Source: Margaritispora aquatica
Taxonomy: Eukaryota; Ascomycota; Leotiomycetes; Helotiales; Discinellaceae
Direction: 5' to 3'
DNA: 64,000 bases
NCBI GenBank assembly: GCA_007644065.1
Contig: VJWN01000040.1
Coordinates: forward strand, 1-64,000
Positions 31,310 through 50,648 of the stretch are shown piece after piece. The position numbers and the translations under genes were made by a program. Under the pieces are notes generated by a model. The model made no database searches and had not been told where the DNA came from. It was given only the letters and a program-made list of their open reading frames with translations. Position 1 is the stretch's first letter. The number at the start of each line of letters is the position of its first letter.

Positions 31310-33072
31310 TCACAAATCCTTATGGAAATTCGGCTCTCCCAACCTCTTCCTCCACGCCTCTCCCTTCACCATCAACGCCGCAATGGGCAGGAAAAACACA
31401 AACACAATCGCCGCGAACGTGCTCCACGCGCCACCATACCCAACCTTAGCCGCAAACGGTAGGGCGAAGTATCCCACGATGAAACTCATGCCTCTCGAGA
31501 GATTGAACAGAACGCCCGACTCAGGCGTTTGCGGCTTGTAGCAATCTGAGATATAAGAATACAGACATGTTGATGCGATCTGCAACCCAAATACACCGAC
31601 GCCCAGTCCCACGAGCGGCACGTACGGACTGTATTTGCCGACTGTTGTGCCGAAGATGATGAGACCGGCTGGCATGAAGATAACAGAGAGCGTGGAGAGG
31701 TACAGTCTCGTCTCGGGCTTACGATCTGTCCCCGTCCGGAGCGCGACGCGCAACATCACGTAATCGCTTGCTTTGCCCGCAAAGAACTCGCCTAGCACTG
31801 AGCCGATAGTTAAGGATGTGCCGAGCATGGCACCGATTGGGCCTGGCTTGAGCTGGTAGAAGTGTGTGTAGATGGTTGCGATGCTGATGGCGGGCATGAC
31901 GTTGATGAAGGTCCAGCCCCAGAAGTAGTAGAGGAAGGGAAAGGTGATGGAGGGGTACTTGAGCATTTGGAACGAGCGATAGAAATCGGAAAGCTGCAGT
32001 GTCCGGCCCGGAATCATGTTGCTCCGGAAGGAGAAGAGCATCTCCCAGTATGTGCGCTCGTGGGTGCGAGCCGCGAGGAATGCTGGGTCACGGGAGAAGA
32101 GCGTCTCGGGGAAGAGGAAGAGTGCGACTGTGAAGGATACTGAGGTGCTTATTGCACCGAGATAGTAATCCCATTGCCAGCCTTTGGCTTGACCTAAGAA
32201 ACCTCCGACTGTTGATTGTTAGTGGTGTTGATGTCGGTATTGGTAGGCGAGGAGTGACATACTGATGGCTGCGAAGTGAGCCCCATTTGTGATGAAAACG
32301 GAGTAAACACCAGTCTTTTCGCCTCTTTCATGCAAGAAGAACATATCGTTGACACATGTAGTGCCAATCGACATCATGCCACCAAAACCGAGACCACAAA
32401 GGGCGCGAGTACCGACTAAAGTCCTGAAATTAGGTGAGAGCCCAGATCCTATCCCACCTGAGATGGTGACAATAATTGCTAATAATGTAATCGGCCGTCT
32501 GCCGTACACATTGGTTAATGGGGTCCATATAAATGGTGATAGACCACCGGTGATAATGGCTGTGGTTGTACTGTAAGCGGCAATCTTGGAGCTGACCCCC
32601 ATTGCCTTTGCGAGAAGTACAAGCGATGGATTGACAAGCGCAGCATTATATGGGCCCAAGAAGGCCATGATACCGACTTGGACCAGAACCGCCCATTTGA
32701 GCCATGATGGCCAATTCTAGAGACAATTGCAATTAGTTCAAGTTGCATGAAAAGTTGTCGATCAATCACTCCATTAGCGACCGGTCCCGACAGCTCGGGT
32801 CTGGGGATGATGGACAGGAGACGGCACCGCGCGTGTTGGAAGATGGTACGAACCAGGGGATCATCTTTGAATCGACTCGGCTGGGGAACCAGCGGAAGTC
32901 CATCAGCCGCCAACTTCAATTGTGGTTCATCTGATGATGAAACTGGGTTTCTATTGCTGCTGTCTTTCTCGGGATCAAATGCGACATCGGCATCACCGTC
33001 GCGCGAAGAAGTCGAAGTCATATCGACGTATGTAACTTGTACGTTACCCTTGAGGTCATCCGTCATAACCAT
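31310..33072 (-). CDS. MFS transporter (DHA1 family), 3 exons
   Basis: Predicted proton-driven exporter in the plasma membrane; the substrate is unknown. Exons are 32854-33072, 32263-32716 and 31310-32208, giving about 523 aa. The N-terminus is hydrophilic and acidic, then DDPLNWPSW leads into helix 1. This DDPxNWP signature is typical of fungal DHA1 drug/multi-substrate transporters. Other landmarks are NVYGRRP (loop 2-3) and the TRALCGLGFGGMMSIG stretch. The cytoplasmic central loop carries PETLFSRD, and the second half ends with PIAALMVKGEAW. The first intron uses an unusual GTTCGT donor but is phase-perfect. A second Met six bases after the chosen ATG is an alternative start. It is divergent from the Zn2Cys6 regulator at 35050 and is a possible efflux gene of the peptide locus downstream. 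Confidence 0.87.
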
Positions 33073-35049
33073 AATCGAAAGCTAAAGTTCAGCTTCGACA
33101 CTGAGACAAAGAGATATATGAATTGAAAGCATTGCGACGAAGGACGAAGTCTTGTATGCCGGGACGTGAGGTAGGAAAGAGGCAAAGTGAATGGGAAGGG
33201 GAAGAAAGAGAGCCTTCCCCGAGGACTGGGATTATTATTATGACTGGGAGGCAAGCATACAGAATGCAGAGGTGGACTTGGGTGTACTCCGTAATGGACA
33301 TTATTTGCAAGGAGGGAAAAGTCGCCAGAAATCTCCAAGACGCCACCCTCTCTTGGCCTACAAGGAGCCAAGACAAATGGGCGGCTTTTGCCATAATAGG
33401 TTACCCGTGCGCTGGTAAGGTAGGGTAGTCGTACTGTATCTAAGACATGAAACGACGAGTTTAAAGAGGTGCATATAGGTACTGTACTGTACCGGTATAC
33501 AGAGGTATGTCCACCCAATTTCAAGTTCGAATGCATTAGCAAGCAGCGTGGAATTCCAACCAGCTTAATGCTCTTACGTCTGGATACAGAGTACCGTGCT
33601 GTGCTGTACAGTGAACATTCATGGTTCGATTATTATATGATGGTGATTATTGTCATGTATGAAAATGTAAGAGGAGGTCAGAGGCGATGCCGTGTGGAGG
33701 GTTGTCCCGTTCCGCTTATGCACCTGGTGAACCTTGAGCATCAAGCGGTTTGTCGGGTTGGTTTTTGATGTTGGTGTTGGGTTTTTTGCGTGCAGGCTCA
33801 ACATGTAAATGTACGGAGGCACGGAGGTACTACTTATTCTATTGAAGGTAATTCATTATGGCGTACTTGATGCATGCAACTAAAAAACCAACCATGCATC
33901 ACTTGCTAGAAAGAGCTTTGCAACCCTTATGACCTATGTATACGTACATGCTGGTATGAATGCTAGGTCTACTCCAAGGGATATGCTGAAAATGTACTTG
34001 AGTACGGACAGATGAGTGATCCGGAGTTTAACAAATTGTCTTCCGGTCATTAAGGGTACGTATAGAGAGCGAATCAAATATCATCCTCACAGCGAGATGT
34101 CCACTATTCTCGGTCCCGAATCAATGTTTCTATGAAGAACCCCGGTCATAGCACAAACATGGACTTACTCTTCTTCATCTTCTTCGTTGATTTCTATGGT
34201 GAGCCGAAAATTTCTTGTACCTCCTGGTAGTGATGTAGTGATGTAGTAATGTTTTTGCCTCAAGTCCTCCATCCACATGTCATTTACATATAGTGCACAA
34301 CCTGTTCTTACCAGCGAGCCGCCTTGCTCCCATTTCTCCCATTTCGGATGCGGGTCAGAAACTCAAACATCCTAGATCTGGAATGGGACGTAGATCCACC
34401 AATCAAGCATTTCTGAGGCTCTCTTTAGATTGCTTTAAGACTGCTTTAAGACTGCTTTAAGACTCCTTTGGCTTGATTAGATTCGGTTGGCATCGATAAA
34501 CGACATCATCGGTCTAGATTAAGCAGATCAAGGACATCAAAGTTGTGATATCGCATACCAACTAGTAGTTAGCTAGGCAGTTAGCAAGCATGACAAAGTA
34601 CTCGAGGCCAATTTGACATAGTCAACCTCTTCACCTCAGCCGAAAGACACAAACCTCTGAGATATATTCCCTTAAAACGCTGGACACCTCTTTTTGTATC
34701 TTGGCTGAAATACACCTGCAAAGCCCTGACGCAACAAGATTATCCGTGCCCAAACTGTACGCTAGCTCCGCATTCCCCAGCTCCACAAATCGTGATTCTG
34801 CACTACGCCTTTCCCCTCTGTCTTCTGCACACTGCACTGTGCACACCTGTCTGTCTGTCTTTGCCAACGTCTTTCTTTTCTTCTTCGCATCTTTGTCCCA
34901 CGAAGTCGCCAATCACAATACATGACCAGCGACCTTCATTCGTTTTGGCATACCGTTTCGCTAGACCCCACGTTTCTGGTGTCTTTCGATTGAGACTGTT
35001 GTCTTGGTCGGTCCGGGTGGTTGCAATCGTGACCTAAATACCGTTCTGG
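33073..35049. promoter_or_regulatory. Divergent intergenic region between second MFS and Zn2Cys6 genes
   Basis: About 2 kb without a believable gene, lying between two divergent transcription units. It contains a near-perfect direct repeat of GATTGCTTTAAGACTGCTTTAAGACT-like units around 34.43-34.47 kb (three copies of a 13-mer beginning GACTGCTTTAA). Binding sites for the adjacent regulator could lie here. Confidence 0.4.
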
Positions 35050-37587
35050 ATGGATCACCACGCCAAGGCAAAGAAGACGGGCAAGGCACGTATCCCCGAT
35101 CACCTTCGACGCCGTGCCCTGGTCAGTTGCGATCGTTGCAAGAAGCGTCGCATACGATGCTCACGATCCAGTGGTACCGATGCAAATGAAGCCTGCCAAA
35201 GTTGTCTCGAAGTCGGCGCGACATGTGAATCAACACTTCCACGGAAGACTCGAATATATGGTAGCGTGGAGACACTTAGTGTTCGGTACCGAGTTCTCGA
35301 TGCCCTGATGAAAGGACTGTATCCGCAGAAGGACACAAACAATATCGACGAACTTTACGCAATTGCTGAAGCAAATGGCATTACTCTCCCAACGTTCGAT
35401 GAGCAAACTGTGGCAGAGGAAGTGTTCAACCGGCCGCCGTCCAAAAATGCAGTGTCCTCTCCCCAGCATTCCGCTGACTCTGCGAGGAGTCCTTCAATCG
35501 CTTCGAAAGAGCAGGAAGTGATAGTTATACCAGATGGACCTCCGGACAAGGTGGTGGAAGAGAGATTGGTTCCCATGCCACACGGACCGTCCCATTATAT
35601 TGGACCGTCGAGCTCGTTTGGCTTCGTGTTGACAGTTCGGAATATGGTAGCAGATCTAACTGCAGCTCTGCGAACTATTCATCCAGATGATGAGCGGACG
35701 AAAATATCCTCGGAATTTGGTGGATCGAATTGGAGCAAGGCGCTTGAACCCATAGTGAAGGACGAGAGCGACTCATCCGAAGACAACATTGACCGGAACT
35801 TGATGGATGCGGGGAGCATTCCATCACGGAGGCCTCGCAGAACTTCACTTTTCCCAAACTCTGCAGAGACAAACTCGGTGAAAGAGATGAAGAAAGCAAC
35901 GCTGTTATCTTTATTGCCTGAGAAGGGGGTTACAGATACATTCGTTGAAGCATTTTTCGAGCATGTCCACCCAAATTATCTGCTTTTCCACCGACCGACT
36001 TTTCAGATGCGCTACGAAGCTATGTGGTTGCAATCTCATACACTCATGCGTGATGTTGAGCAGGGCTGGATTTGTTGTATCTTCATGATATTGGTCTTTG
36101 GAGCACAGGCACTAGTTGATCGCGACAAGTACCAGTCCACCCAAATTCAGCGACATTATCTCGCTTTAGTTCAAGCTCGAATGCATCAATTGATAAGTGC
36201 GACAACGTTGGTAAACGTACAAGCAATTTTACTACTCCAACTTTACCAGCATAATTGCACAGAACGCAATAGTGCGTTTATGCTTCTCGGATGCGCCTCT
36301 AGAATGGCGATGGCCTTGGGCATGCATCGAGAAGGGACATCTGGAGGATTCGATGAGATGGAAAAAGAAGTTCGAAAGCGTGTATGGTGGACAACCTACA
36401 TGTTTGAGCAAACGCAATGTGCTATCTTGGGACGACCATGTGCAATTGATGATACAGAAGTCAACATCACATTCCCAGACGAATTAATGCTCGATGGTGG
36501 GCAGTCAGTTCCCCAGGGTTATATAGAATATTCAGTACGGCTCTCAAAGATACTGTCTGACATCAGGAGAAAAGTATATGCTGCACCAACAAATCTCAAA
36601 CAGCAGGGAGATTCGCCTAAGATCAGCGTCGCCATACAATGTCTTCATGATCTTGACACTTGGCATCATAGTCTGCCTCCTTCGCTTCGGATGGAATGTC
36701 TCTCTTCTCTGCCCAAACACCGTAGAGCTGTTTGGCTCCTTCATATTCAGTTTCACCACACGCAATCCCTCGTCGCACGACCCTTCATCTTACGGAAGGT
36801 TGGAGTTCAACTTGCACGTAGGTTGGGTAGACATGTCAGATCTCAGGATTTAGACCAGGAGGAATTAGACTTGAGCAGTGCTTGCGGAACTTTCTCTCGA
36901 AAAGCTGCTATACTCATTCACCAAATGATCCTCTCCGGAATGTTTGATGGGGTTGCTTGGCTTGATGCATTTTTCCTTTACCAGTCCGTGTTCATTCTTG
37001 CTCTTGACTTCTTAGCTCGGCCGTGGGACGAACAAGACACACCGGAGGATTTGGCACGCAAAAAAGCCGTTCGTGATGTGATGGGAGCTTTGCAGAATGT
37101 CAAGCTGTGCCCAACTTACACCATCTTAACCCAGGTGTCGCTGCAACTCACAAAGATAGTTGGCATTTTAGATGCGAGAAGCGATCAACTGGTCAAGTCG
37201 GAGGAGTATCGCCGTTATATGGAACAGCAACAAGCTACCTTTACCTTTGATTATCCCCCACAGAATATGGCTGTTGGTCCAGGTGGTAATGTCGTACAAA
37301 ATTGGTTCCAAAAGGAGCCAGTCGATCTCCCCTGGGAATTGAAAGATTTCTTTGGCACCGACAGCTATATTGGACCTGCAACTAATGTCTCTGGTCAACA
37401 ATTTCCAGGTATGCCAGTCACCATTGGCGGTCAATTTCACCCGCAAATAGTGCCCATGATCCCAGAAGAGGATATGATCTCACCGATTCCACCACATACT
37501 GCTTACACACACTGGGGTGCAATGGACAGCCCTTTCACCCAACATCAGAGGAACGGCAGTATCCCCAGAGGTCCAGGGATGAATTGA
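35050..37587 (+). CDS. Zn(II)2Cys6 transcription factor, intronless, 845 aa
   Basis: Nuclear regulator in one uninterrupted frame. The zinc cluster is at residues 27-59 (CDRCKKRRIRC then CQSCLEVGATC) in a basic context. The fungal-specific transcription factor domain begins near residue 300 (EAFFEHVHPNYLLFHRPTFQ). It continues through the conserved SRMAMALGMHREG and RKRVWWTTYMFEQ blocks and GRPCAIDDTEVNI. The middle (130-170, 240-290) is Ser-rich and acidic and could be activating. It diverges from the MFS gene at 33072 and ends only 51 bp before the convergent FAD monooxygenase. That placement makes it a plausible pathway-specific regulator for the surrounding secondary-metabolite-like genes. 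Confidence 0.92.
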   Translation: MDHHAKAKKTGKARIPDHLRRRALVSCDRCKKRRIRCSRSSGTDANEACQSCLEVGATCESTLPRKTRIYGSVETLSVRYRVLDALMKGLYPQKDTNNIDELYAIAEANGITLPTFDEQTVAEEVFNRPPSKNAVSSPQHSADSARSPSIASKEQEVIVIPDGPPDKVVEERLVPMPHGPSHYIGPSSSFGFVLTVRNMVADLTAALRTIHPDDERTKISSEFGGSNWSKALEPIVKDESDSSEDNIDRNLMDAGSIPSRRPRRTSLFPNSAETNSVKEMKKATLLSLLPEKGVTDTFVEAFFEHVHPNYLLFHRPTFQMRYEAMWLQSHTLMRDVEQGWICCIFMILVFGAQALVDRDKYQSTQIQRHYLALVQARMHQLISATTLVNVQAILLLQLYQHNCTERNSAFMLLGCASRMAMALGMHREGTSGGFDEMEKEVRKRVWWTTYMFEQTQCAILGRPCAIDDTEVNITFPDELMLDGGQSVPQGYIEYSVRLSKILSDIRRKVYAAPTNLKQQGDSPKISVAIQCLHDLDTWHHSLPPSLRMECLSSLPKHRRAVWLLHIQFHHTQSLVARPFILRKVGVQLARRLGRHVRSQDLDQEELDLSSACGTFSRKAAILIHQMILSGMFDGVAWLDAFFLYQSVFILALDFLARPWDEQDTPEDLARKKAVRDVMGALQNVKLCPTYTILTQVSLQLTKIVGILDARSDQLVKSEEYRRYMEQQQATFTFDYPPQNMAVGPGGNVVQNWFQKEPVDLPWELKDFFGTDSYIGPATNVSGQQFPGMPVTIGGQFHPQIVPMIPEEDMISPIPPHTAYTHWGAMDSPFTQHQRNGSIPRGPGMN

Positions 37588-37638
37588 AAGATGTATAACA
37601 AAGGTCTATTACAGGGTATCATTATAATGGAACTAAGA

Positions 37639-39292
37639 TTACAAATATCCTCCATTGGCATGCCCATTTATGTGTCCTGAGTTGACATCTCTCAAGACGT
37701 TATAGGCATCATATCCAAACAGCCAATCAAGAAATTCCTTTCTTGACCGGATGTTCTCGTGCCCCGCTTGAATTCCTGGATGCTCTATGCAATACTGGTC
37801 TCGAGCTTGTTGCTTCGGTCCATCACCCATCTGTGTGAACCAGCGAGAGTCAATCGAAGCAGTTGCAACTCTAGCCGCGCGTTTTATCCTGAGACTCTCA
37901 TAGAGTAATAGAGTCTCGTGCAAAGTGGCAACATCTGGGCTATTCTCAAGAAGTCCGCCCAAAATAGCGGCATCTTCAATTCCCATTGCTGCACCCTGAG
38001 CAAGGTATGGTGTCATTGCATGAGCGGCGTCTCCGATGAGGCAGACTTTGCCAGATGGATGCACCCAACTCGGCAATTCCTTATGTGTGAAAAGCTATAT
38101 GGATTAGCAAGCTCTTCGGTAGTGGAATATTGATACATACTCTCCACTCAAGCACGTCTCCAACGTGTTCCAGCATCATTGTGATCCTGTTTCAGCTTAG
38201 ATCTTGCAAAGTCATTAGGTGAAAACTACATGCCTTGGATCCCAACTCTCAAATCTCTTCCTTACAGCCACCAAATCGCCAATCCTCTGATTGACTCCTT
38301 CGGGCATCCAGCCTTCAGCATCGCACCTGCTCAGTCAGCAATTATAGGCCATTTGTGAGGTATGGTACTCACGTAAAGACAAAATTTATCAGGGTATCAT
38401 GAGCACCTTCCAGAAGATAAGAGAGAGCCGTGCCATTCGGTCCCAGCCAGTGATTGTTCCTTGGAACGGTGATGATTTCTTCTAATTCAGGTATCCCATT
38501 CAACATTCTCGTCGGCATGGTCACACGATATACCATCTGCCCTGTTGGTACCGGAGGACTGGGTTTGCCGAGCACATATTCTCGAGCTATAGAATGGAGT
38601 CCTAGCGAGTTAGTCCTCGAATCATATGTAACGGAAGAGCACCGTACCGTCAGAAGCTACAATCAAGTCACTTTCGTACACCGCGCCTGTCTTAGTGACA
38701 ACAGACGGCGTTGCAGAATCAATTGAAACAACTCTCGAGTCAAGCTGAACCTCGCATCCTGCTTCTCTTGCGGCTTCCAACAACCCACGATGCAAGTCTG
38801 CTCGATGGATATGCCTAGTTCGCTTAGCGCCATTCCACGCCAAACAGTTCGTTTGAACTCACCAGTACGGAGACCCGTACTCCTCCTGCGCGGGCTGTTT
38901 CAGTGGAGATTCTACGAGGATTTTCCCGTCTTGCCATCGCATCATCCGCAGGTCGATGGGCTCGACGCAGTATTTTTCGATGTGAGTGTCTACGCCCAAG
39001 GCGCGAAGGATTCGTGAGGAGTTGGGGGTGATTTGGATCCCTGTGTGAGGTGAGATGTTAGTTTTAATGAGAAGAAAGAGATAAGTCGGTAGTAGCTGAG
39101 AAGGAATGGATGGAGTATGTGTGTTTCGAAAGGGAGGGGTTTAATGGCAGATGATGCACAGGAGGAGGGCATACCAGCGCCAATATAGCTAATCGAAGGT
39201 GCGCTCTCCAAGATTGTGACTTTATGTCCTGCTTTCGCGAGCGCGATGGAGACCGTTAGGCCAGCGAGACCGCAGCCTATTACTATTACGTG
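37639..39292 (-). CDS. FAD-dependent monooxygenase (class A, salicylate-hydroxylase-like), 5' end unresolved
   Basis: NAD(P)H- and FAD-dependent hydroxylase of unknown substrate. Seven exons reconstruct: 39175-39292, 38863-39040, 38648-38814, 38373-38586, 38234-38326, 38141-38186 and 37639-38094, about 423 visible residues. The N-terminal Rossmann motif is HVIVIGCGLAGL, followed by HKVTILES. A mid-protein DG motif reads VASDG and the second FAD motif is GDAAHAMTPYLAQGA. An in-frame stop precedes the first visible codon, so the start codon lies in an upstream exon that I could not fix. The intron at 38187-38233 has a GC-AG boundary. Such enzymes (e.g. ustF1/F2 in ustiloxin biosynthesis) commonly tailor metabolites, so this could belong to the nearby UstYa locus, but a catabolic role is equally possible. 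Confidence 0.88.
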
Positions 39293-42200
39293 CTTTTGAG
39301 CGAGGGTTATGTTAGCTTAGACTGTTCGGTTATATAGGTCGGCAACTTTATAGTGTAGTAAGTAGTTTCTAATGAGATTGTTTGAATAGAGTAATGCAAA
39401 CGAGTTCTGATTGAGAAAACAGGCGATCATCGTACCATGATTGCGAGGAGTGAACAATAAGTATGTAGGTAGGTGAACAATAAGTATGTAGGTAGGAGGA
39501 TCTGAAGTCGGTAATGGTCTGTACGAGTGCTGTCGTCCTTAAAGGATAGGAAGTCGAGTAGAGAGGATAGTGAGCAAGAGTAGTACGTACGCCACACTAA
39601 GGACGTTGATGCAGATCTGACGAGCTAAATATCTACTTGCATCACTTCATCCACGAGTTTTCCACGAGCAACGGAGGGGCGACCGTTGATGAAGTATATT
39701 TTTGACTTTTCCGTTTTCCGAGCGGGAGATTGTACACGGACGGGCAATGGCATGGGATGGGATGAGCCGGGGGGAGGACGACATGCAGGCACATCACCAC
39801 TTCAGATCAAGACCGGGCTAGATCACATCACTTCCCATCATATCATCTCATATCACTTCCTTCTTCCCTTCCTATCACCTATTGTGAATCTCACTAGCAG
39901 GGGAAGGAAGCTACGGAAACTATGTTAAGATCTTACAAAGAGCAAGGGCAAGGGCAAGAGCAAAAGCAAGTGACGATACGATTGAGTGCCGTGCTCGGTG
40001 AGAACTGCTGGGCGCGCGAACCGGAGGGGGAAGCGAGGTTGAAAGAAATATGGAAGTATCCTTCCTTTCTTGGCGTATAAATTACAGCCAGGTCAGTCCA
40101 ACGTGACTGCTTTATGGTATGCCACGGTATGCCACTCTCACCTCGTTTATTGCTGTACGAATACGGTCGTATGATTGAGGAGGGCGCTTGTGTGAGTGTG
40201 CGATTGTTTGCTTGTTTGTTTGTCTCGGATAGGAAGAGCTGAATGACGGACAACGTGGAGGTGCTCGGTTGTCAATATTTTCTTGTGGCGCAAGATATTG
40301 GTATCTATCTAGGTGGGTAGGTATCTATTTGTGTGTATATGGTGGTTTCCTGTTAGTTCATGGGTTGTCTCGTCTACTGAGAATCAGGTAAGGATGTGCT
40401 GAAGAACTCTCAACTTGGATCTGTTGGATTGGATGATGTTGTACGAGCTTGTTAGTGATATCTCATATTTTCGCTTCGGATTCGGATGGGTAGGTAAGTC
40501 AAAGCGTTTATTGGCACAAGTACCGCTGCCGGTGACAGATTCTTGTTGGTAGGTTGGCTGGTTGTGGGTGCTGTGGGTGCTGTGGTTGGAATAAGCTACA
40601 TATATTGGATGGTGGGGTCGAAAAATTCATGGCGGGGTGTGGTGTGGTGTTCACTGTGGTTGTTGGGCGGATGCATCGACCCGTCGGGTGGATGCTCTCG
40701 AGACATCGATCGAGATATCGTGATATCCAATATCGAATATGGTATTGAATATTGGATGTTGGATATTGGAGTTCGAAAACCAATCAATAACGTGGCGATT
40801 GGCAGATACACAAAGTATCTTGTGATCGAGATGGCATCTCGCTGGAAGATTGAGAGAAAATGGAAAATTACACCAACTCGCTAAAAATAGATACTTGGAT
40901 ATATGATTACACAAGAGCCTTCTCATTTTCCTGTGTATGTATATGGTGTGATGTTCTGATATTCTGATGTGGAAAATTGACGAAGCATACTGGTAAAAAC
41001 AAAATATTTGCTAGGATCCAAAGATAAAGCAAGATACCAATCCAAATATCCAAAACTCAATATCCAATACTCTACCAGCAAATCTCGGACCTCTTCCCCA
41101 ATCCGTTCCGGCACACATGTCCTCCATATTCACCAAATCGAGACAGCCTTAAATGCAAAATCAAACACTCAATTCAATATCCAAGGTTCACTGACCCACG
41201 ATGGAGGGTTCCAGTCCGGCTTTTTCCCACGTGAACTTCGGATGAACTGAAATGGGTCGATACTGCATGTGCGCATGCATGCGTTTTGTATGCAGCGAGG
41301 GAGCAGCAGGGGACGGACGTGACGGAACGGCTCGCTGCCAATGTTCCCCGGGTTGGTTTGGCACGCTCAGCTTCTCGCCGGCCAGCTAATCATGCTGTGC
41401 GCTTCGTGGGAGAGTGTTTCCCGCTTGGGATGGAGGTGCTGAATCAATGCACGGGTATGTGTTTGTGCTGTGGAAAAATTCGTAGTATATAGTGGTAGTG
41501 ATGGGAAAGGTGGAAGAGGACGGGGAAAGAAAGGATGGATACTTCCTTTCTTTTCTTTCCTTGTGTGAAGAGGCATGGTTGAGTGTTGGTGTGAGGTGAT
41601 GGGAGTGCGGGGGAGGAAATCCGGCGCTTAAGCTCTTGTCAGATTGAGAATTGCATCAAGTGAGGTGAGACTGTGGATGAGTAATGATAAGTTAGTGGAT
41701 GGCAGATGAGTCGATTAATAACTCCTACAAGGACTTTACGGAGGGTGTTATTTGAAATTTGACCTTAGGCAAGTTTTGCAAATTAATTGAGTAATAAGTC
41801 TGAACTTTCATTTTTCGAGAATGTCGAAAATCATCCACTTATCATTCCATGGCAAAAACAAAGTCGTCCGATTGAGTCGTCCTGATCCTCAGCTAATACA
41901 AAAAAGGATATTTTGGGCAAAATCAGTAAACTCAATAAACAGGATCTAACTGATGATCTTGTGGATTGGCAGTGAAGTGTTCTTGTGATGAACCGATCGA
42001 TATGCGAGATTTACAAGATCGACAATCACCAGAAGAGTATGAAGAAAAATATGACGTCGGCATATCCTCGAATTGTATTATCACTACCGAAGTATTGAAA
42101 TGCTGGTGAATTAAATGACGTGATTATTAAGTGATTACACACTGTGTACTTCTCCACCTCTGGGATTGTCTGTTGCTTTCATCCTCCCACCCGTAATCCG

Positions 42201-44198
42201 AAGTCAAATCATTTGCACGAGCCGAATATTTTTGAAACGCCACTAATTATACGATTTTCTTGTTTCCGCTACGGTTGTATTGATCAGGAGCGTGTGATTA
42301 TGTGTATTTGTGACTTCTGGTTCGTTTCGACATGTGGATGAGAAAATCGATCGTTTGTGGAGTACGCGAGAATCACGATTTAGGTGTGCTTGGACGTGCT
42401 GCTCAATACTTGATGTTATTATGTAATTCGGGGCTGAATCGATCAATATTGTGGGGTTAGATGTACTCCTAGCTTCAGGTTTGTGTGGATGTTTTGATGA
42501 AGGGTAAATCACTTGCAATATACGTGAGCAACTGAGTTAGGACTGTGGAGGATTAAGAAATGGGAACAGTATGGATATTGTATTGAACTTTGAGGATGGC
42601 ATATGATGGTATAGGATGGGTTATCGTTGTGATTGACACCAAAATATCACCTTTTTCACTTAGAGTTTCTCAATTGTGCTCGCTTGCGTTTTCGTTCCGG
42701 TTTCCTTGTTACAAGGTGAAAGTCAACGAGAAGATATTTGACGATATCCACTGTCGCTAGACAGCAAAGAAAGTTGTTCACAAAGCTGGAGATTTTTACA
42801 GGCTTTTAGATAAGCATTTCGGAATATCATAGCAATAATTATCTATTCATGCAAAACTGACGTTACTAATTTAAAAGTGAGAATGAGAGAAAATTGCAGC
42901 CTTTAGGAATGGCAAATAGTCGGAAAGTGAGGCACGGAAAAGCATTTCTTTAGCGAGAGAAATATGGAAACCTTGAGGTAATTGTTATACGCTTGAGTCC
43001 TTATTTGATGATTCTATCATAAATTCTAGTCCCTTGAGAAATATTTTCGAATTCACGAATAACTCTAGGCAGTTCGCGAATGGCCTAGGTTATCAATAGA
43101 AGAACTAGTCAGTTTGGAAGTAGGTTGGTTAATTCACGAAAAAGATACGTTTCATAACAGATAGTAGGCCCTCCACGAACTATCTTGTCTAACTACAAAT
43201 AGTAGTCTCATTACAATTAGGTTACTCTATTCGTGAAAACGCTTTATCCCTAGCGTGACCAAAACATATGTCACTTGACAGACGAATTTCAATTCTATTA
43301 AAGTGGTATCGATACAAAGCGAAGGATTGGATATATTCCTAACTTTAAATCTGTTTACAAGTCTTATGTTTTGATCAAGAGATAAATGTATTGTAATCGA
43401 TCTGAAAAAAACAGGTATAGAATATAAGGAATAAAGAGACAGGAGTAACTAAACATAATATCTAGCTGTACGAGATACATATAGCGCTTAAACTAATTAA
43501 TTATATAAAACTATGCCATTTTCACTCTTAATTTACCCATTTACGCTCGTGAAGGATACTTGTTGAGGGACTCCAAGGATTTCTTAGCTACTAAGACGAA
43601 TTCAGCGACGATCAAGTAACACACCTTAAGAAAATATCTACTATTTACTCAAAAGATGGAAAACTTATTCACAAAGCCAGACTTCCATCTACACCCGCTT
43701 TCTAGAAATTTATCTCAGAACATAGTAATCTTACTTCTGATGATTTGTTTAGGACTAAGGATGAATATTATACTCAAGAGTAAGTAAGAATAAGAGAAGA
43801 GAAGAACTGTAATCTTTAGATACAAGATATAAAAAGCATAGGGAAATGACAGATAGAGTTTGTTGGTTACTTTTCTGGGTATTTGGTTGTAGGTGTATGA
43901 GCTCTCACGTAGTTGTTCTCTTATGTTAGTATTGCCTTCCTTGGAATCTGAGTGAATAGGTTGAGTATGAGTAGTATAAGAAATTTCGAGCAAACTTTGA
44001 GAGACTCTTATGATGTACTGACACATTAGCTGATTCCAGATGACTCGTTATTCTATGCCAATTCACCTCGCTTAGACCAAGACTCATTCAATAGCACATC
44101 AGATCACATCGAAGCACACGTTCGGGAATCTAAGTATCAAACGTCAATTCAATATTTTCATTGCTAAATTCAACTAAGAAGTCCCACCCTCTCACAAG
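39293..44198. other. 4.9-kb gene-poor, AT-rich stretch
   Basis: No reading frame with domain character. Around 40.69-40.77 and 41.03-41.19 kb there are repeated AATATCC/GGATATT words in both orientations. From about 41.7 to 44.1 kb the sequence is markedly AT-rich with many stops in all frames, as in a repeat-induced-mutation relic, but I cannot identify a parent element. Confidence 0.5.
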
Positions 44199-45372
44199 CT
44201 AAGAAGGCCCAACAACACTCCTCAAATCATCGACCCTCCTCTCCTCGATCCACGCGATGGCCTCGCTCCGGTCCCGACACATATGTGGCTGCCCCAACTC
44301 CCTCGCATCAATGCTGCTCTTCATGCCCTCAAGCGTCATGTCTGCGTTACACAGTATCGACGTGCGCAGGTACTCGAAGCAGTGCGCGGCGTGCATGTCG
44401 TTGCGTGGCATGTCGAAGCCGAATTTGAGGTCTGCTGTTGAGTTGTAGGTGGGCGAAGAGGTCGAGGTCACGAGCTGGTGGTATGTGTCGATGGAGTAGT
44501 AGAGCTAGGGGTGGCGTGTTAGCTGGGTAAGTGGGAGGAGAGGGAGGGGAGACGAACGCAGTGCAGTGCGTGTGTCCAGCTTGCTTCGAAGATTGGTCCG
44601 TCGCGGATGGGGTCGTCGGTTATGGGATCGCCTAGGTTGGGGTAGTCTTTGTATTGTGGGAGGCTGACGCTACCGCTACCAACTATCGCAATTACTTATT
44701 AGTGCTTGGTCTCTAACTGCAGAGGAAGAGAGACTTACGGGGCATCAGCATGTCCCAGTTATGGCGAATAGCCATTCGGTTAGAGTCGTCCGTCATGTTG
44801 GGGAAGTAGAGTTCCTCTTCTGTCGTGAGGTGTGTGTACACATGGCTTGCTGTTTGACTGTCAGATGGTGTAGATATGAAGGAACAATATCGTGTGAATG
44901 AATCGTCAGTTTTGCACTTACTAGGCACATACAACCCATTGACATCACCACCCGTCTCTGTCTTCCCAACCGACCACTGCGTTCCCTCACTCCTATCAAT
45001 CGGTACCTTCCCCGCTGCCAGCTTCACGCCCACAACGCCATTCTCACCAAGCGGTCCCGTTCCCTTCAGCACGCTTCCCCATCCCGCCTCCATGAGTCCC
45101 GCTGACGGCAGTAACATCATGATGATAATACCCTGCAGCAAAACGATAGTGCCGAAGCGTATCCATGTCAGGATGACAGACAGTCGTTCAGACTTGGATG
45201 CGAGGTTGGAGCGTTTAGACAGGAGGCCTTCGTTTGCGAGTGTCGTTTCTGAGGAGGCGTCTTCGAGGTCCTCGTCTTGTTGATGGGATTGGTGGTGGTG
45301 ATGGTGTGAGGAAAGCGAGAGGGTTGAGGTCGAGTGGTGGAGCGACATGTATGGCGATTGTTTGGAGGACAT
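44199..45372 (-). CDS. UstYa-like protein (DUF3328), copy A
   Basis: Members of the UstYa family install oxidative crosslinks in fungal ribosomal peptides such as ustiloxin. Four exons (44922-45372, 44739-44849, 44558-44682, 44199-44504) give about 330 aa. A His/Ser-rich cytoplasmic N-terminus is followed by one membrane helix (about 68-90: WIRFGTIVLLQGIIIMMLL) and a lumenal domain. The two diagnostic HxxHC motifs are present: HALHC in exon 3 and HAAHC (HAAHCFEYLR) in exon 4. The C-terminal Cys motif reads PHMCRDRSEAIAW. It is more divergent than copy B, and its first motif is visible only after joining exons 3 and 4. Same strand as copy B and about 1.5 kb downstream of it. Family membership is firm; the crosslinking role is inferred. 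Confidence 0.85.
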
Positions 45373-46915
45373 GGTTGAGGGTTTTCGCTATTGTATAAAC
45401 TCGATGTGATGGTTAGTATGCCGCGAGATGGATCAATCTCTATCTCTCTGAGTCTAAAGAGAGAAGATGCAATGTATCAAACGAACAATCCCTCACAATC
45501 CAAGGTATTGTTAAGAGTAGCTCTGATCTAGTACACCAACAAGCCAGTGATTATAGAACAGTGTACAAAGGCAAAAAAAGGAAACCAGTCCTCTACAATA
45601 TTAAAATAGAAACAAAAAAACGCAAGTATCAACAGTGTCTAAAGAGCCGAAACGAATGAAGTGAAGATAATCGGATTGGAACTCGCAAATCGTCAAGACT
45701 TGGATGCTGTACAGAAAAATCGAGCACAGTGGAGGAGTAGGAGGAGAGCACACAGACACGACTGACAACAGATCTCAACGGCGCCGTCACTCGAAAGCCC
45801 AAGCCTCAGGTCCAAGCAAGCTACTCGCATCCTCCCATGTATGCGAATTTGTACGCAGCGTATAGCATAGCAACGCTCAAACCGTCTAAAATGGCCTCAA
45901 ACGTGACATCGTTCCGAGCACCAGGGACGACCGTCTACACTTGCCAATTGCCCTATCTCCTACCTAACTAGTAACTCACAAAATCCCATCCATGTCGCAC
46001 AGAAATGAGACGAGACACGACTAGACAGGCTCGGTGAGGAGGACGGGGCGATCGAAACATGCGGACGTACAGATGGACGGATTGACAAAATGAAATGCAA
46101 CTTTGACACTTGACAGCTCCACCCGCTTCACATGAGGCGCTCATGGCGACAAAACAAGCTGTGTGGCGTGCTGCTGGGTTGTGGCTCGTGGCTCGGCCGT
46201 GGTCGTGGTGCTTGGTGAGGCTTGTTGGGTTTGAGGTTGCATTGGGAAGCTTGGAATAGGCTCGAGATACCTTGTTTTGGTGGAACGAATGAATTGGATG
46301 AGATTGGATTGGATGGATAATGGATGATCTGGCTTGGTATGGATTGAGTTAAGGGGAGAGAAGAGGCAGAAAGAGATGAGACAGGCACCGTTTGACAGGT
46401 GGGTTGGGGTGGGTTGGTGGAGCCGAAACGGACGACGACGGACGGGGTTAAGCGAGCAGAGACGAAAGGTGGGGAATGCTCAGGGGTTAAACAAATGTGG
46501 CGGACAGGGGATGGGACGGATAGAAGACCTGTTTTGAGAAAAGGGAGAGGAGGTGGGTTGGAGTTGGACACGAGAGAGGAGGAAAAGGAAAAGGGGATGT
46601 TGTGTGGAAATAAGGATTAAGAAAGTTGGGGAGCATAGATTGGGTGGGAGTGGGTAGTAATATATTGGATTTAAGGTTACGTGGTGGAGGTGAAGTATTT
46701 CATGCTTAATATGAGATAGGCAGATGTTGAATAAAGGTGTGGATTGACATGAGAGCGTGGGTTGCTGTTCATGGTTGAAGCTCTCAATTTCTTCAAAAGC
46801 CAAAACATCGACCCCTTACTTATGCACTTCAGTCGAGGTTTCCAAGGATTAACACACCTGCAAGAGATTTCTGGATTGTGAACAACATGCTATATTCTGA
46901 AAGTGCTTTCTGTAT
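45373..46915. other. Intergenic between the two UstYa-like genes
   Basis: About 1.5 kb. A 147-codon frame at 46128-46571 (minus) is Pro/Ser-rich low complexity and I do not accept it as a gene. The promoter of copy A should lie near 45.4-45.7 kb. Confidence 0.45.
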
Positions 46916-47913
46916 CTAATTTGGACTGACATCTCCCCTCTCCATATTACCAACTGAGTTCTCCAACGCCCAATCACGCACGCGATCAAAGTTCCTGCAC
47001 TGATGGAAGGAGTTGAGTTCTGGCCAAGGAAGTGGGTCATCCTCGAGCATGTAGAAAGTGAAGACACCGACATCTGCGTTGCACTGAACGTTCATGCGAA
47101 GGATCTCGAGGCAGTGATCTTTGTTTATCTGTTAGCAGGCTGTTTATTGCAACAATTTGTCTAAAGAATGACTTACCAGTGTGCATCTGCAGCTCCTCGT
47201 CGCCACCTACGAAATTGCCGTTCCCGAGCTCAGTGTAGTACTTCTTGTACGTCACCTGGCGCAGGAGGTTGATACAGTGGAGCTGGTGGAAGACCTCGAG
47301 ACCAACACGATAGCCTTCGACACCAGTCTTTGGGTGCTTGGCTCTGAGGTGTGTTTTTGGCATGCCGATGATGTCGAGCTCGGCATCGGTGATGACTTGG
47401 TCACCAACTATGGTTTCGTCAGATTCTGCTCTTCTGAGCGAGGTAAGATAAATGAACTCACTGTCATATGAAATAGCGTGCCATGCTTTGTCTACCTCAG
47501 GTCCAGCTCCAACGTACGGAGACCCTTCACCCATCGTAGCATTAAATTTGACTTTCTGGTACTCAACCGCCTTTGCTGCTGGTGCTGTTTGGATATTAGT
47601 CTTGTACTGGCTCCAAGGAGGCGAATTGTCACTCACAATACGCAGAAAACTGCTGGACATGCTCTAACGTCGACGGCCTTTGAAAGAACGAAGCCACGAA
47701 CATCGTACCAGACAACATGAACAGCGCCGCGTGCACAACCCAAATCCACCTGCAACTCATCACTGACCGGCTGGCTCGTGGCCTCGTCAGTCTAGCATCC
47801 TCCTCATCCTCCAAAAGCGTATCATCTGAAGTCGAAGTCGACGCCCTCCTGGCATCGAACAGGACCTCCGAGAACTTCTCGTCGTCCTTAACTGGTTGGT
47901 ATTTAGAAGCCAT
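46916..47913 (-). CDS. UstYa-like protein (DUF3328), copy B
   Basis: Canonical member of the family. Exons 47637-47913, 47462-47584, 47177-47407 and 46916-47118 give about 277 aa, the usual length. A cytoplasmic acidic N-terminus is followed by a single helix (WIWVVHAALFMLSGTMFVASFF, about 55-76) and a lumenal domain. Both HxxHC motifs are perfect: HQLHC (VFHQLHCINLLRQ) and HTDHC (HTDHCLEILR). The typical ending FHQCRNFDRVRDW follows. For the second intron I prefer 54 nt (47408-47461), giving YDIGDQVITDAEL, over a 36-nt alternative that is too short. It lies divergently 1.7 kb from the repeat protein at 49585, as UstYa genes lie beside precursor genes in dikaritin clusters. It likely acts in the secretory pathway on a peptide substrate. 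Confidence 0.92.
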
Positions 47914-49584
47914 TATCGCACCGAATAAAAATAATTACACCGGGTAATTGTCAAGAAGTGAAAAGTAAGAGAGAAAGATACAAGCAAGTAAGTGAATGAA
48001 CGAATGTGCTTGACCAGAAGCAATTGTCAAGAACTCAAAAGAGAGAGAGAGAGAGAAAAGAAGAAAGCGAAGCAGAATGAAGAGATACCAAGCATGAACG
48101 ACCGAACATAAAAACGAGGGAGAGAGGGAAACAACTCAGGGAGACGCTGATACAGCCACTAACTGAGTCGTGCGATCCGATGGCTTGGGAAGAGAGTGAG
48201 GTGCGCAAGCAAGTACACGCGAGTTTCATCTGATGGCAAGCTTTGAGTTCTGCGACGCCTCATCGCAACCGGGCGAGATGGGATGAGACAAGCTTGAACC
48301 TCGAGGAATTGACGAGGTGCGTCCGAAAACCAATCTGGATGCATTTTGTATGTAATTCTCCTGAATTGGGAGGAAATGGCTCATGAATTGCCGTGAAACA
48401 TCCTTGTGGAGAAAATGTCCGGCGGTGGGGCCGTCCCTGTGCTCTACTGTGCTGCAATGAAGTGGAGTTGAATGTCGGAGATTTCTTGATTGGATTTAAT
48501 TCAATTTGGAGTCAATATGTGCAAGGCGTGTTGTTGTGTTGTTGTGTTGTGATTAACTAATTCATGTTAATTCCGGAGATATCAACTTGGAAAGGTTAGT
48601 AGGTTGTGTGAAAACACTCGATAGGCGAGGGAAATTCTAGACGAGTTGCATGAATGAGCGACGACGTATTATCGCATTGATGCCCATTTCCATTTCCTTT
48701 TCCATTTCCATTTCGTCTGAAGTAACGATGGGCGTCATCGTGGAAGTTGAGAGTTCTTTTGCCGCTGTCAAGATTAAAAGTCAAACTTAAAGTCCAAACA
48801 CCAGCCTCAACCGCCCAACCGAGGTTTCACAACGAAGATGCAACAACTCCTCAACCGTTGGAATCCAGGATTCCGCATGACTTCTCCCCATATTTGTGAC
48901 ACGTTCCCAATCGTCCGAAATGTCATGGTCACTCCCATACACCAGCCACAATAGAATCTCAGACATCGTCCGCGAGATCTTGCCTGCCTTTATACGCCGA
49001 ATTCGTATATCGGCTCCACCTCCCACCAGCAGCGGGTGACAAGACTCCATTGAGCCTTATGGAAACTCCCTAGGAGTTATCACTTTATCGGCTGTGATGA
49101 AGGAAGTGTCCACTAGATGTAACTAGATGCTGTGATTCGCTGACCATGGGTGCTCAATCCTTCATAATCGACTTGGTGGCTTCAGATGGTGGAGCTGGGC
49201 AGTCTATCAAGCATCGCTCGTCTCGAGCTTAATTTTGCGTGTGAAGCTTACTGTAAAGCATGCCTGCATACTGTAGCATACCTACTCGTACCGTACTGTA
49301 CACGCAACCTGTCCGCCTCCTCTTTTCTCTCCCGCCTCTCTCTCACTCCCCTGTCCCTATTGCCCCCCTCCCTAAAAGCTAAAACCAAACCAACGAGTGA
49401 GGAAGCAAGCAAAGCAGTTCGTATAAGAGACGCCGCGTCCTCTGGTAACGTTCTCAAACTCACTCACTCATCCCACTCAGCTCATTCTCCATTCTCTCAT
49501 TCCTTCTTTCCACTTTTTTCTTCTTTCATTCCATTCCATTCGTTACTGCCGGCCAGTTCAATCTTTTTTATATAAACTTTCAAC
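47914..49584. promoter_or_regulatory. Divergent intergenic region between UstYa copy B and the repeat protein
   Basis: About 1.7 kb holding both promoters. A pyrimidine-rich stretch (about 49.31-49.55 kb) and TATATAAA at 49569-49576 sit immediately before the repeat-protein ATG; that TATA is too close to the start codon to be its core promoter unless transcription starts elsewhere. An 87-codon minus-strand frame (48787-49050) shows no recognisable domain. Confidence 0.45.
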
Positions 49585-50648
49585 ATGTACACTTCAATCT
49601 CCAACCTTCTCACCCTCGGCCTCTTGGCCTCCGTTCCTTTGACCAACGCCTACGCTATCCCACTGTCCCAGCAGGTTGCGAGACGGGATGTCACCGCTTC
49701 GCCTGTGGCGTGGGTCCGCTCGCTGATTGACGCGAGGCATCACACCGAGAAGCAGATCGCTGCTAAGAAGGCCAAGGCTGCTGGCACTGCTCGCGATGTT
49801 GAGGTCGAGGCTCGGGAACCCCGTGTGTCACTATCCCAGCTTTGGATTTAAGTCCTCAAACTAATTGGAACTTTCTAGATCACACTGAGAAGCAAATTGC
49901 AGCTAAGAAGGCGAAAGCTGCTGCCAACGCTCGTGATCTCGAGACCCGAGAGCCACATCACACAGAAAAGCAGATCGCAGCAAAGAAGGCAAAGGCTGCG
50001 GCAGGAGCTAAGCGCGATGTTGAAGTAGAAGCCCGTGAGCCTCACCACACTGAGAAGCAAATCGCGGCAAAGAAGGCCAAGGCCGCTGGCACTGCCCGTG
50101 ATGTCGAAGCTCGTGAACCTCACCACACTGAAAAGCAGATTGCTGCAAAGAAGGCCAAGGCTGCTGCTTCAGCCCGCGATGTCGAGACCCGGGAGCCACA
50201 CCACACCGAGAAGCAAATCGCAGCAAAGAAGGCAAAAGCCGCCGCAGGAGCCAAGCGCGATGTCGAAGTTGAGGCTCGCGAACCTCACCACACCGAGAAG
50301 CAAATCGCAGCCAAGAAAGCCAAGGCTGCCGGTACTGCCCGTGACGTCGAGGTAGAAGCACGCGAACCTCACCACACTGAGAAGCAGATCGCAGCCAAGA
50401 AAGCCAAGGCAGCCGCCTCAGCTCGCGACGTTGAGATCGAGACCCGCGAACCCCACCACACCGAGAAGCAAATCGCCGCCAAGAAGGCCAAGGCTGCAGG
50501 GACTGCTCGCGACCTCGCTGCCGACGAGGCGTTGGAGGATGCCGAGGACTTGGAGGATCAGGAAGATTTGGAGGATGAGGAGGAGGCGGAGGACGAGGCG
50601 GACGCTGCTGCTGAGGCTGCTGCTGAGGCTGCTGCTGCCTCTGCGTAG
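49585..50648 (+). CDS. Secreted nine-repeat protein, candidate Kex2-processed / RiPP precursor
   Basis: Two exons (49585-49822, 49879-50648) give about 335 aa. The intron lies inside the second repeat, between the two halves of its first His codon. Residues 1-24 are a signal peptide (SISNLLTLGLLASVPLTNAYA). A dibasic ARR-D site follows at 33-34. Then come nine copies of HHTEKQIAAKKAKAA, joined by spacers of the type GTARDVEVEAREP, ASARDVETREP or AGAKRDVEVEAREP. Each copy contains KK; only two spacers contain KR. The tail is strongly acidic, then Ala-rich. Exporting repeats flanked by basic sites is the layout of fungal peptide precursors (UstA-like, or pheromone-like with X-Ala/X-Pro spacers). 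No Tyr, Phe or Trp occurs in any repeat, unlike known UstYa substrates, so the product is unknown. A secreted structural or Lys/His-rich protein is the alternative. Confidence 0.8.
49738..50513 (+). repeat. Nine tandem coding repeats of 78-87 bp
   Basis: Units are 26-29 codons, because spacers come in shorter (e.g. DVEAREP) and longer (KRDVEVEAREP) forms. The 15-residue HHTEK... block is identical in all nine copies at protein level, while codons differ between copies. For example, the block begins ACC-GAG-AAG-CAG-ATC in copy 1 and ACT-GAG-AAG-CAA-ATT in copy 2. Confidence 0.92.

What the first reader, a model, noticed from the sequence alone, without database searches (positions are those of the whole stretch)
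44199..50648. Possible undescribed ribosomal-peptide locus: two UstYa-like genes beside a secreted nine-repeat precursor
Seen: two DUF3328 proteins with paired HxxHC motifs, and 1.7 kb away a signal-peptide protein with nine identical 15-residue units between basic and acidic spacers. Known: UstYa proteins plus a repeat precursor define dikaritin clusters (ustiloxin, phomopsin, asperipin). Inferred: this is a RiPP locus. It differs from known ones because the repeat lacks Tyr, Phe and Trp, so any crosslink would have to involve His, Lys, Thr or Gln.
Basis: partly seen in the sequence, partly recalled or inferred. Interest (0 to 1): 0.92.

Follow-up and report, generated by a model that had tools for sequence, protein, structure and literature searches.

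The report
Fungal repeat-peptide gene with oxidase pair
A fungus carries a gene for a secreted protein that is probably cut into nine near-identical small peptides starting with two histidines, next to two copper-type enzymes that probably modify them; the same gene set occurs in distantly related fungi, and what the peptide does is still unknown.

Summary
Two intact UstYa (DUF3328) genes, each with two HxxHC motifs, lie beside a divergent gene (1,671 bp away) for a 335-aa secreted-type precursor with nine identical HHTEKQIAAKKAKAA units. Relatives carry HHTEAQIAAK. Locus tags put precursor and UstYa genes side by side in two lichen fungi and in Ciborinia. This is very probably the di-histidine repeat-protein type G-3 catalogued by Umemura in 2020 (57 of 64 with DUF3328), so it is not wholly undescribed; my searches of the held papers showed no chemistry for it.

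New here: in 122 of 123 repeat units of 21 precursors, the stretch between the last Arg and HH is empty or made only of X-Ala/X-Pro dipeptides, as alpha-pheromone precursors have for the peptidase Ste13. Mature peptides should thus begin with a free His-His; in the window all nine would be 18 residues. Best reading: pheromone-style trimming plus oxidation of a non-aromatic peptide by paired copper enzymes. That these enzymes act on the HH peptide, and where, is inferred. A Trp-containing module in 15 of 20 relatives, absent here, is a rival substrate.

The parts
44199..45372 (-). g1: UstYa/DUF3328 oxidase gene, exons 45372-44922, 44849-44739, 44682-44558, 44504-44199; 330 aa; one hydrophobic helix, HALHC and HAAHC
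   Evidence: splice model; PF11807 51.8 bits; motifs; 65 homologs at E<=1e-20
46916..47913 (-). g2: UstYa/DUF3328 oxidase gene, exons 47913-47637, 47584-47462, 47407-47177, 47118-46916; 277 aa; one hydrophobic helix, HQLHC and HTDHC
   Evidence: splice model; PF11807 185.2 bits; motifs; 171 homologs at E<=1e-20 (120 listed)
47914..49584 (.). 1,671-bp shared intergenic region between the divergent g2 and precursor genes
   Evidence: coordinates
49585..50648 (+). precursor (Kex2-processed-repeat-type) gene; exons 49585-49822 and 49879-50648; 335 aa
   Evidence: the only copy found in the own genome
49823..49878 (+). intron of the precursor gene (GT..AG, contains CTAAT); splits the first His codon of unit 2
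49585..49656 (+). predicted signal peptide, residues 1-24 (cut after NAYA judged by eye)
   Evidence: most hydrophobic windows span residues 8-27; no signal-peptide program was available
49738..49782 (+). unit 1 HHTEKQIAAKKAKAA, directly after IDAR
49822..49922 (+). unit 2 (bases 49822 and 49879-49922)
49956..50000 (+). unit 3
50043..50087 (+). unit 4
50121..50165 (+). unit 5
50199..50243 (+). unit 6
50286..50330 (+). unit 7
50370..50414 (+). unit 8
50454..50498 (+). unit 9
50499..50645 (+). GTAR and then an acidic, Ala-rich C-terminal tail of the precursor

Best explanation
This is a three-gene fungal ribosomal-peptide locus. The precursor enters the secretory pathway by its signal peptide. 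In the Golgi a Kex2-type protease cuts after Arg (KR shortly before 2 of 9 units, otherwise a single Arg), Kex1-type trimming removes the C-terminal basic residues, and a Ste13-type dipeptidyl peptidase removes the Glu-Pro in front of eight of the nine units (the first unit directly follows Arg), releasing nine 18-residue peptides HHTEKQIAAKKAKAA-(GTA/ANA/AGA/ASA) with a free N-terminal His-His. The two membrane-anchored UstYa proteins, most likely binuclear copper oxidases in the same compartment and possibly working as a pair, oxidise the invariant HHTE-QIAAK part. The product is secreted. Shown from sequence: gene models, repeats, dipeptide ladder, near-invariant core, adjacency in distant species, presence of Kex2-like and Ste13-like genes elsewhere in the genome (a Kex1-like gene was not looked for). 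Inferred: actual processing, copper chemistry of these two proteins, that the HH peptide is their substrate. Open: which atoms are modified and what the peptide does. The near-invariance of the core over at least three classes of Ascomycota (class names recalled) speaks for a signal or metal-binding role more than for a diversifying toxin.
For: Adjacency: of the 10 named precursor hits, 5 have a listed g1 or g2 homolog in the same species on a contig of the same length; by tags Varicellaria MMC14_001557 (precursor)/001556 (g2)/001555 (g1), the gene order of the window; Icmadophila MMC33_002123 (precursor)/002125 (g1); Ciborinia NHQ30_010197/010198 (g2); Xylogone 902211/902212 (g2), where the numbers look like protein ids and may not be strictly positional. 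The fifth, Talaromyces stipitatus, is only 'same 4.0-Mb contig' (g1). g1 and g2 carry consecutive tags in five further species (Venustampulla, Chlorociboria, Hymenoscyphus, Verruconis, Fonsecaea monophora). Core: 101 HHTE units from 18 relatives, positions 1-4 invariant, 5-10 (AQIAAK) 99-100 of 101 each. Dipeptide ladder: 122 of 123 units of 21 precursors; of 103 non-empty spacers 102 are perfect, against a mean of 46.8 and a maximum of 63 in 2,000 within-spacer shuffles; 16 of 17 distinct spacers perfect. All nine window peptides would be 18 aa after removal of C-terminal K/R. Own genome has one P_proprotein (Kex2-type) gene and two DPPIV_N loci. The DUF3328 enzyme CctR is a membrane-bound binuclear copper oxidase using its HxxHC pairs (PMC12435403, parts 1-2 of 3 read). 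In the g1 and g2 orthologs the two HxxHC motifs lie on two helices (models of low to middling confidence).
Against: No expression, proteomic or chemical data. 7 of 9 units in the window have no dibasic site within 14 residues upstream, and 7 of 20 relatives (P0003, P0004, P0005, P0010, P0018, P0019, P0020) have none at any unit, so canonical Kex2 cleavage is not assured. 15 of 20 relatives also carry a Trp-containing module (DEFGPWDSTEDEFGSW-like) that could be the true oxidase substrate there. 5 of 10 named precursors show no same-contig UstYa hit (lists hold cluster representatives and show 120 of 171 for g2, so this is weak). 7 of Umemura's 64 G-3 precursors lack a DUF3328 neighbour. No tyrosinase or S41 peptidase match on the contig. 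The g2 sequence and the g2-ortholog model matched nothing solved; g1 was not searched.
Confidence: 0.6

Rival explanations
1. The HH peptide is an unmodified linear signalling peptide (alpha-pheromone-like Kex2/Ste13 product); the UstYa pair sits beside it for another substrate.
For: The X-Ala/X-Pro ladder is typical of alpha-pheromone precursors (PMC6339444, PMC9769878, passages); core conservation over distant fungi fits a receptor ligand.
Against: Adjacency of precursor and UstYa genes in distant fungi. Umemura reports mating-factor precursors almost never have DUF3328 neighbours (three exceptions), whereas 57 of 64 G-3 do.
Confidence: 0.17
2. In the family the UstYa pair modifies the Trp-containing DEFGPWDSTEDEFGSW-like module; the HH units are recognition or spacer elements, and the window has lost the real core.
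For: 15 of 20 relatives carry the module with 2 Trp per copy; the known crosslinks summarised by Umemura are made on the aromatic ring of Tyr (PMC7329392).
Against: The window lacks the module and keeps both UstYa genes intact; Ciborinia lacks it and keeps g2 next door. A search of the own genome with the module joined to HH units found only the HH units of this precursor. The core is free of amino-acid change in nine copies.
Confidence: 0.13
3. A typical dikaritin cluster (ustiloxin/phomopsin kind) with a Tyr-based macrocycle.
For: Signal peptide, repeats, two UstYa genes.
Against: No Tyr, Phe or Trp in the repeat region; none of 22 tyrosinase matches in the genome lies on contig C35.
Confidence: 0.03
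4. Chance neighbours: a repeat-rich secreted protein (structural, amyloid or wall protein) beside unrelated oxidases.
For: KEPs and UstYa genes are each common in fungi; 22% of KEPs have a DUF3328 gene among the 15 closest genes (PMC7329392); this genome has UstYa matches at about ten other places.
Against: Close locus tags in lichen fungi and Ciborinia and the same gene order.
Confidence: 0.04

Closest known systems
KEP type G-3 (di-histidine) of Umemura 2020, PMC7329392
   Same: HH-containing repeats, 57 of 64 with DUF3328 genes nearby; 15 of its 20 genera recur (3 of them, Talaromyces, Botryotinia and Cladophialophora, with an HHTE precursor)
   Different: Probably nothing in kind; the passages and section part I read give no product, no Ste13 ladder for G-3 and no enzyme mechanism. 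The window's units carry Lys instead of Ala at position 5. Identity with G-3 rests on HH and genera; its logo was not seen.
KEP type G-8 (di-histidine) of Umemura 2020
   Same: HH, DUF3328 in 45 of 49; the Sporothrix and Microdochium relatives have R-(E/A)P-HH(A/T)G units with the same X-Pro step and may belong here (Sporothrix is a listed G-8 genus, Microdochium is not)
   Different: Beyond HH the core differs (HHAGKKTG, HHTGGQNN)
Dikaritins (ustiloxin, phomopsin, asperipin-2a, epichloecyclin, victorin)
   Same: Secreted repeat precursor plus UstYa oxidases with double HxxHC
   Different: No aromatic residue in the repeats, no tyrosinase or S41 peptidase match on the contig, Ste13-type dipeptide ladder present
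Ascomycete alpha-pheromone precursors
   Same: Signal peptide, repeats, basic site followed by X-Ala/X-Pro dipeptides before each peptide
   Different: Core unrelated to pheromone families in Pfam; UstYa pair adjacent
CctR, cyclochlorotine hydroxylase (PMC12435403)
   Same: DUF3328 membrane protein with paired HxxHC
   Different: Acts on a non-ribosomal cyclic peptide; no repeat precursor

Membership tests
Dikaritin RiPP locus | UstYa/DUF3328 protein(s) with two HxxHC motifs | tested here: met
   Two genes, PF11807 51.8 and 185.2 bits; motifs in both
Dikaritin RiPP locus | Secreted precursor with repeated cores | tested here: met
   335 aa, nine units; signal peptide judged by hydropathy only
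Dikaritin RiPP locus | Dibasic Kex2 sites between repeats | tested here: inconclusive
   KR/RR within 14 aa upstream of 2 of 9 units; single Arg elsewhere
Dikaritin RiPP locus | Aromatic (Tyr) residue in the core for the ether crosslink | tested here: not met
   No Y or W from the first unit on, no F in the protein
Dikaritin RiPP locus | Tyrosinase and peptidase in the cluster (original five-gene definition, as told in PMC12048977) | tested here: not met
   0 of 22 tyrosinase and 0 of 4 S41 matches on contig C35, 177 kb; other peptidases and methyltransferases were not searched. The later definition asks for DUF3328 only.
Dikaritin RiPP locus | Cyclic product | not testable with these tools
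   Needs mass spectrometry
KEP type G-3 (Umemura 2020) | Repeats with di-histidine | tested here: met
   9 of 9 units
KEP type G-3 (Umemura 2020) | DUF3328 gene among the 15 closest genes | tested here: met
   g2 at 1.67 kb, g1 beyond it
KEP type G-3 (Umemura 2020) | Matches the published repeat profile | not testable with these tools
   Figure and supplementary tables not available; genera overlap 15 of 20
alpha-pheromone-type precursor | X-Ala/X-Pro ladder after the Kex2-type site | tested here: met
   Window 9 of 9 (8 with EP, 1 with no spacer); family 122 of 123
alpha-pheromone-type precursor | Known pheromone core | tested here: not met
   HHTE core; Pfam gives no pheromone family, only a DUF7282 hit below its cut-off
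Copper-dependent DUF3328 oxidase | Copper binding and O2-dependent oxidation | not testable with these tools
   Motif and helix placement only

The most novel reading that the evidence does not exclude
A class of fungal ribosomal peptides, spread over several classes of Ascomycota with an almost unchanging core, in which alpha-pheromone-type trimming exposes an N-terminal His-His and a dedicated pair of copper oxidases modifies a peptide without any aromatic residue (at His or an aliphatic neighbour), giving a conserved copper-binding or signalling peptide. As far as I recall it would be the first ribosomal substrate of UstYa proteins without an aromatic residue, and it would link mating-type peptide processing with RiPP chemistry.
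Probability: 0.3. Interest if true: 0.8.

Novelty: new variant of a known kind. Interest (0 to 1): 0.52.

Why it matters
A 2022 review names only five reported dikaritins (PMC10512285, passages), while 1,758 KEPs with DUF3328 neighbours were predicted in 2020. This type is among the ten most widespread there by genera and unlike the known ones: no aromatic residue here, a conserved rather than diversifying core, and pheromone-style trimming. It gives an exact, testable prediction of the peptide ends (18-mers starting His-His), which is what a mass-spectrometric search needs.

Tried and rejected
Scans of viral and prokaryotic contigs for g2-type relatives, and of viral contigs for the HHTEAQIAAK motif, gave none, as expected for a fungal family. 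Foldseek of the g2-ortholog model gave 104 matches at E <= 10 and none at E <= 0.001; the g1-ortholog model was not searched because its confidence is low (mean pLDDT 60.8). Antimicrobial-helix idea: the mature 18-mer is not unusually amphipathic (42.6% of shuffles reach its moment; a relative's peptide 97%). Other copies in the own genome: only the two exons of this precursor and one weak match (E 0.019, contig C45); of ten stretches around the other UstYa matches only L021 and L029 hold frames with a 6-residue word three or more times. Mirror-tree of g1 and g2 distances over 19 taxa gives r = 0.82, 0 of 5,000 permutations reaching it, but four taxa (Botrytis, Rhynchosporium, Talaromyces, Rutstroemia) pair two species or strains of a genus and shared species history alone can produce such a value, so I do not count it. 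The Zn-cluster factor, FAD monooxygenase and MFS genes at 31-39 kb were considered as cluster members and left out: about 4.9 kb separates them from g1, whose open frames were listed but not scanned with Pfam. Literature: 'HHTEAQ' and longer forms in 0 papers of the held library; 'DUF3328' with 'STE13' in one. Lichen paper PMC12048977 and Trichoderma paper PMC7099791 (passages) do not contain 'HHT'; the former found no repeated precursor in its two DUF3328 clans. The 2025 JACS paper on a copper-dependent DUF3328 macrocyclase is known to me only from a reference list; it is not held.
Full report
What is there. The window lies in a 42.4-Mb genome in 49 contigs, on a 177-kb contig; close g2 homologs are from Hyaloscypha (82% identity), Cadophora (79%) and a Mollisiaceae strain (91% over 75% of the length), so it is an ascomycete, probably of the Helotiales (order recalled). 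Three genes form the locus. On the minus strand g1 (45372-44199) and g2 (47913-46916) each have four exons, with hand-chosen GT..AG introns of 52-72 bp, and encode UstYa/DUF3328 proteins. Both keep one hydrophobic stretch near the N-terminus and two HxxHC motifs. Divergent from g2, 1,671 bp away, the precursor gene (49585-50648, one 56-bp intron) encodes 335 aa with nine exact HHTEKQIAAKKAKAA units. Between units the spacers vary; within units every one of 236 pairwise base differences is at a third codon position. Since units were picked by exact protein match, the fair statement is that the protein contains nine units and no variant one.

Relatives. A search of 5.8 billion proteins gave 20 relatives of the precursor (only the 7,992 candidates sharing most words were scored). 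Eighteen carry HHTE repeats, two (Sporothrix, Microdochium) carry HHAG/HHTG repeats; one of the eighteen (P0019) looks like a mispredicted frame. In the 101 HHTE units of relatives the first four positions never change and positions 5-10 read AQIAAK in 99-100 of 101 each; from position 11 on they vary. The window's Lys at position 5, in all nine units, is not seen in these relatives.

Adjacency. Names given by the sources contain locus tags. Varicellaria rhodocarpa, a lichen fungus, has precursor, g2 and g1 homologs with tags 1557, 1556, 1555, the same order as in the window. Icmadophila has precursor 2123 and g1 2125. Ciborinia has precursor 010197 and g2 010198. Xylogone has precursor 902211 and g2 902212 (numbers that may not be strictly positional), with a g1 homolog on a contig of the same length. 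Talaromyces stipitatus has precursor and g1 on a contig of the same length, 4.0 Mb, which is weak. So 5 of the 10 named precursors show a same-contig partner, four of them with close numbers. The other five show none, but the lists contain cluster representatives and the g2 list shows 120 of 171. g1 and g2 have consecutive tags in five further species.

Processing. I measured the stretch between the last Arg and each HH in the window and all 20 relatives. In 122 of 123 units it is empty (20 units) or consists only of X-Ala/X-Pro dipeptides (mostly EP, EA, DP, and ladders such as DAEPEAEP or DAVADPEAEA). Of 103 non-empty spacers 102 fit, against a mean of 46.8 and a maximum of 63 in 2,000 shuffles; among 17 distinct spacers 16 fit. 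The one misfit is a first unit with no Arg before it. Units within a protein and related proteins are not independent, which the distinct-spacer count only partly meets. This is the signature of the Ste13 dipeptidyl peptidase in alpha-pheromone precursors, and Le Marquer and co-workers write that STE13 is not predicted to process ustiloxin and phomopsin precursors (PMC6339444, sections 9, 10 and 16 and passages read). It implies that the mature peptides start with a free His-His. In the window, removing the C-terminal basic residues leaves 18 residues in all nine cases. The genome has a Kex2-type gene and two DPPIV_N loci. Against canonical Kex2 cleavage: 2 of 9 window units have a dibasic site within 14 residues upstream, and 7 of 20 relatives have none at any unit.

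Enzymes. The DUF3328 hydroxylase CctR is a binuclear copper, O2-dependent enzyme; alanine mutants of its HxxHC residues were inactive, and a study cited there places it at Golgi, endosome and vacuole membranes (PMC12435403, parts 1 and 2 of 3 read). AlphaFold models of g2 and g1 orthologs (mean pLDDT 69.4 and 60.8) put the two motifs on two helices, in line with the CctR model described there. Two HxxHC motifs are found in 85 of 104 g2 homologs and 55 of 61 g1 homologs of at least 200 aa. The g2 sequence has no match among solved structures and the g2-ortholog model none at E <= 0.001; g1 was not searched. DUF3328 enzymes are credited with hydroxylation, halogenation, macrocyclisation and isomerisation (PMC12435403) and desaturation (PMC10512285, passages), so lack of aromatic residues does not by itself force a His, Lys, Thr or Gln crosslink. 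His crosslinks do exist in other ribosomal peptides: noursin, a bacterial lanthipeptide, binds copper through one (PMC10206099, passages).

What is known. Umemura 2020 (PMC7329392; outline, part 1 of section 6 and passages read) sorted 7,878 KEPs and found a di-histidine motif in types G-3 and G-8. G-3 has 64 members in 20 genera, 57 with DUF3328 genes and 7 without. Fifteen of those genera recur, among them Talaromyces, Cladophialophora and Botryotinia with HHTE precursors. I take the window locus as G-3, without having seen the logo. No product is described in the passages I read; 'HHTEAQ' occurs in no paper of the held library, and only Umemura's paper there contains both 'DUF3328' and 'STE13'. 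Subscription papers are mostly missing from that library.

Rivals. In 15 of 20 relatives HH units alternate with a DEFGPWDSTEDEFGSW-like module that contains two Trp. The UstYa pair could act there. The window lacks the module but keeps both enzymes, Ciborinia lacks it but keeps g2 next door, and a search of the own genome with a query holding the module returned only this precursor's HH units, which favours the HH unit as substrate without proving it. A purely linear signal peptide is the other serious rival.

Verdict. The family is catalogued but, as far as my searches reach, chemically unexplored. What the evidence adds is a predicted peptide boundary, pheromone-style trimming in a UstYa-linked precursor, and a core that hardly changes between distant Ascomycota.

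Noticed in passing
own genome contig C5:621122-622420 (+), L029:6423-7721: A 433-aa open frame with repeats like LGGLTGLLAR followed by X-Ala/X-Pro dipeptides and Gln (for example EAEANPEPQ), about 1.5 kb from another UstYa match (C5:619305-619642) and about 14 kb from a tyrosinase match (C5:606555-606884): a second candidate repeat-peptide locus.
   Followed up: partly
P0018 (Sporothrix) and P0020 (Microdochium): Precursors whose repeats share only the X-Pro step and HH with the window (HHAGKKTG, HHTGGQNN); they may be type G-8 and part of one larger di-histidine family.
   Followed up: partly
relatives of the precursor (15 of 20): A near-duplicated acidic Trp module (DEFGPWDSTEDEFGSW-like) alternates with the HH units and is absent from the window, Botryotinia and Ciborinia precursors.
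   Followed up: partly
window 27304-29645 (+): Reverse-transcriptase domain (RVT_1) and a below-cut-off TERT_C match: possibly the telomerase reverse transcriptase gene.
   Followed up: no
window 31313-39316: MFS transporter, Zn-cluster transcription factor and FAD monooxygenase side by side, possibly a separate small metabolic cluster.
   Followed up: no
window 42500-44000: AT-rich stretch (33-38% GC) without a recognised gene just beyond g1.
   Followed up: no
own genome contig C48, L021:7322-8140: An open frame with a 6-residue word repeated three times on both strands, a few kb from the best UstYa match of the genome; it looks like a plain DNA tandem repeat.
   Followed up: no
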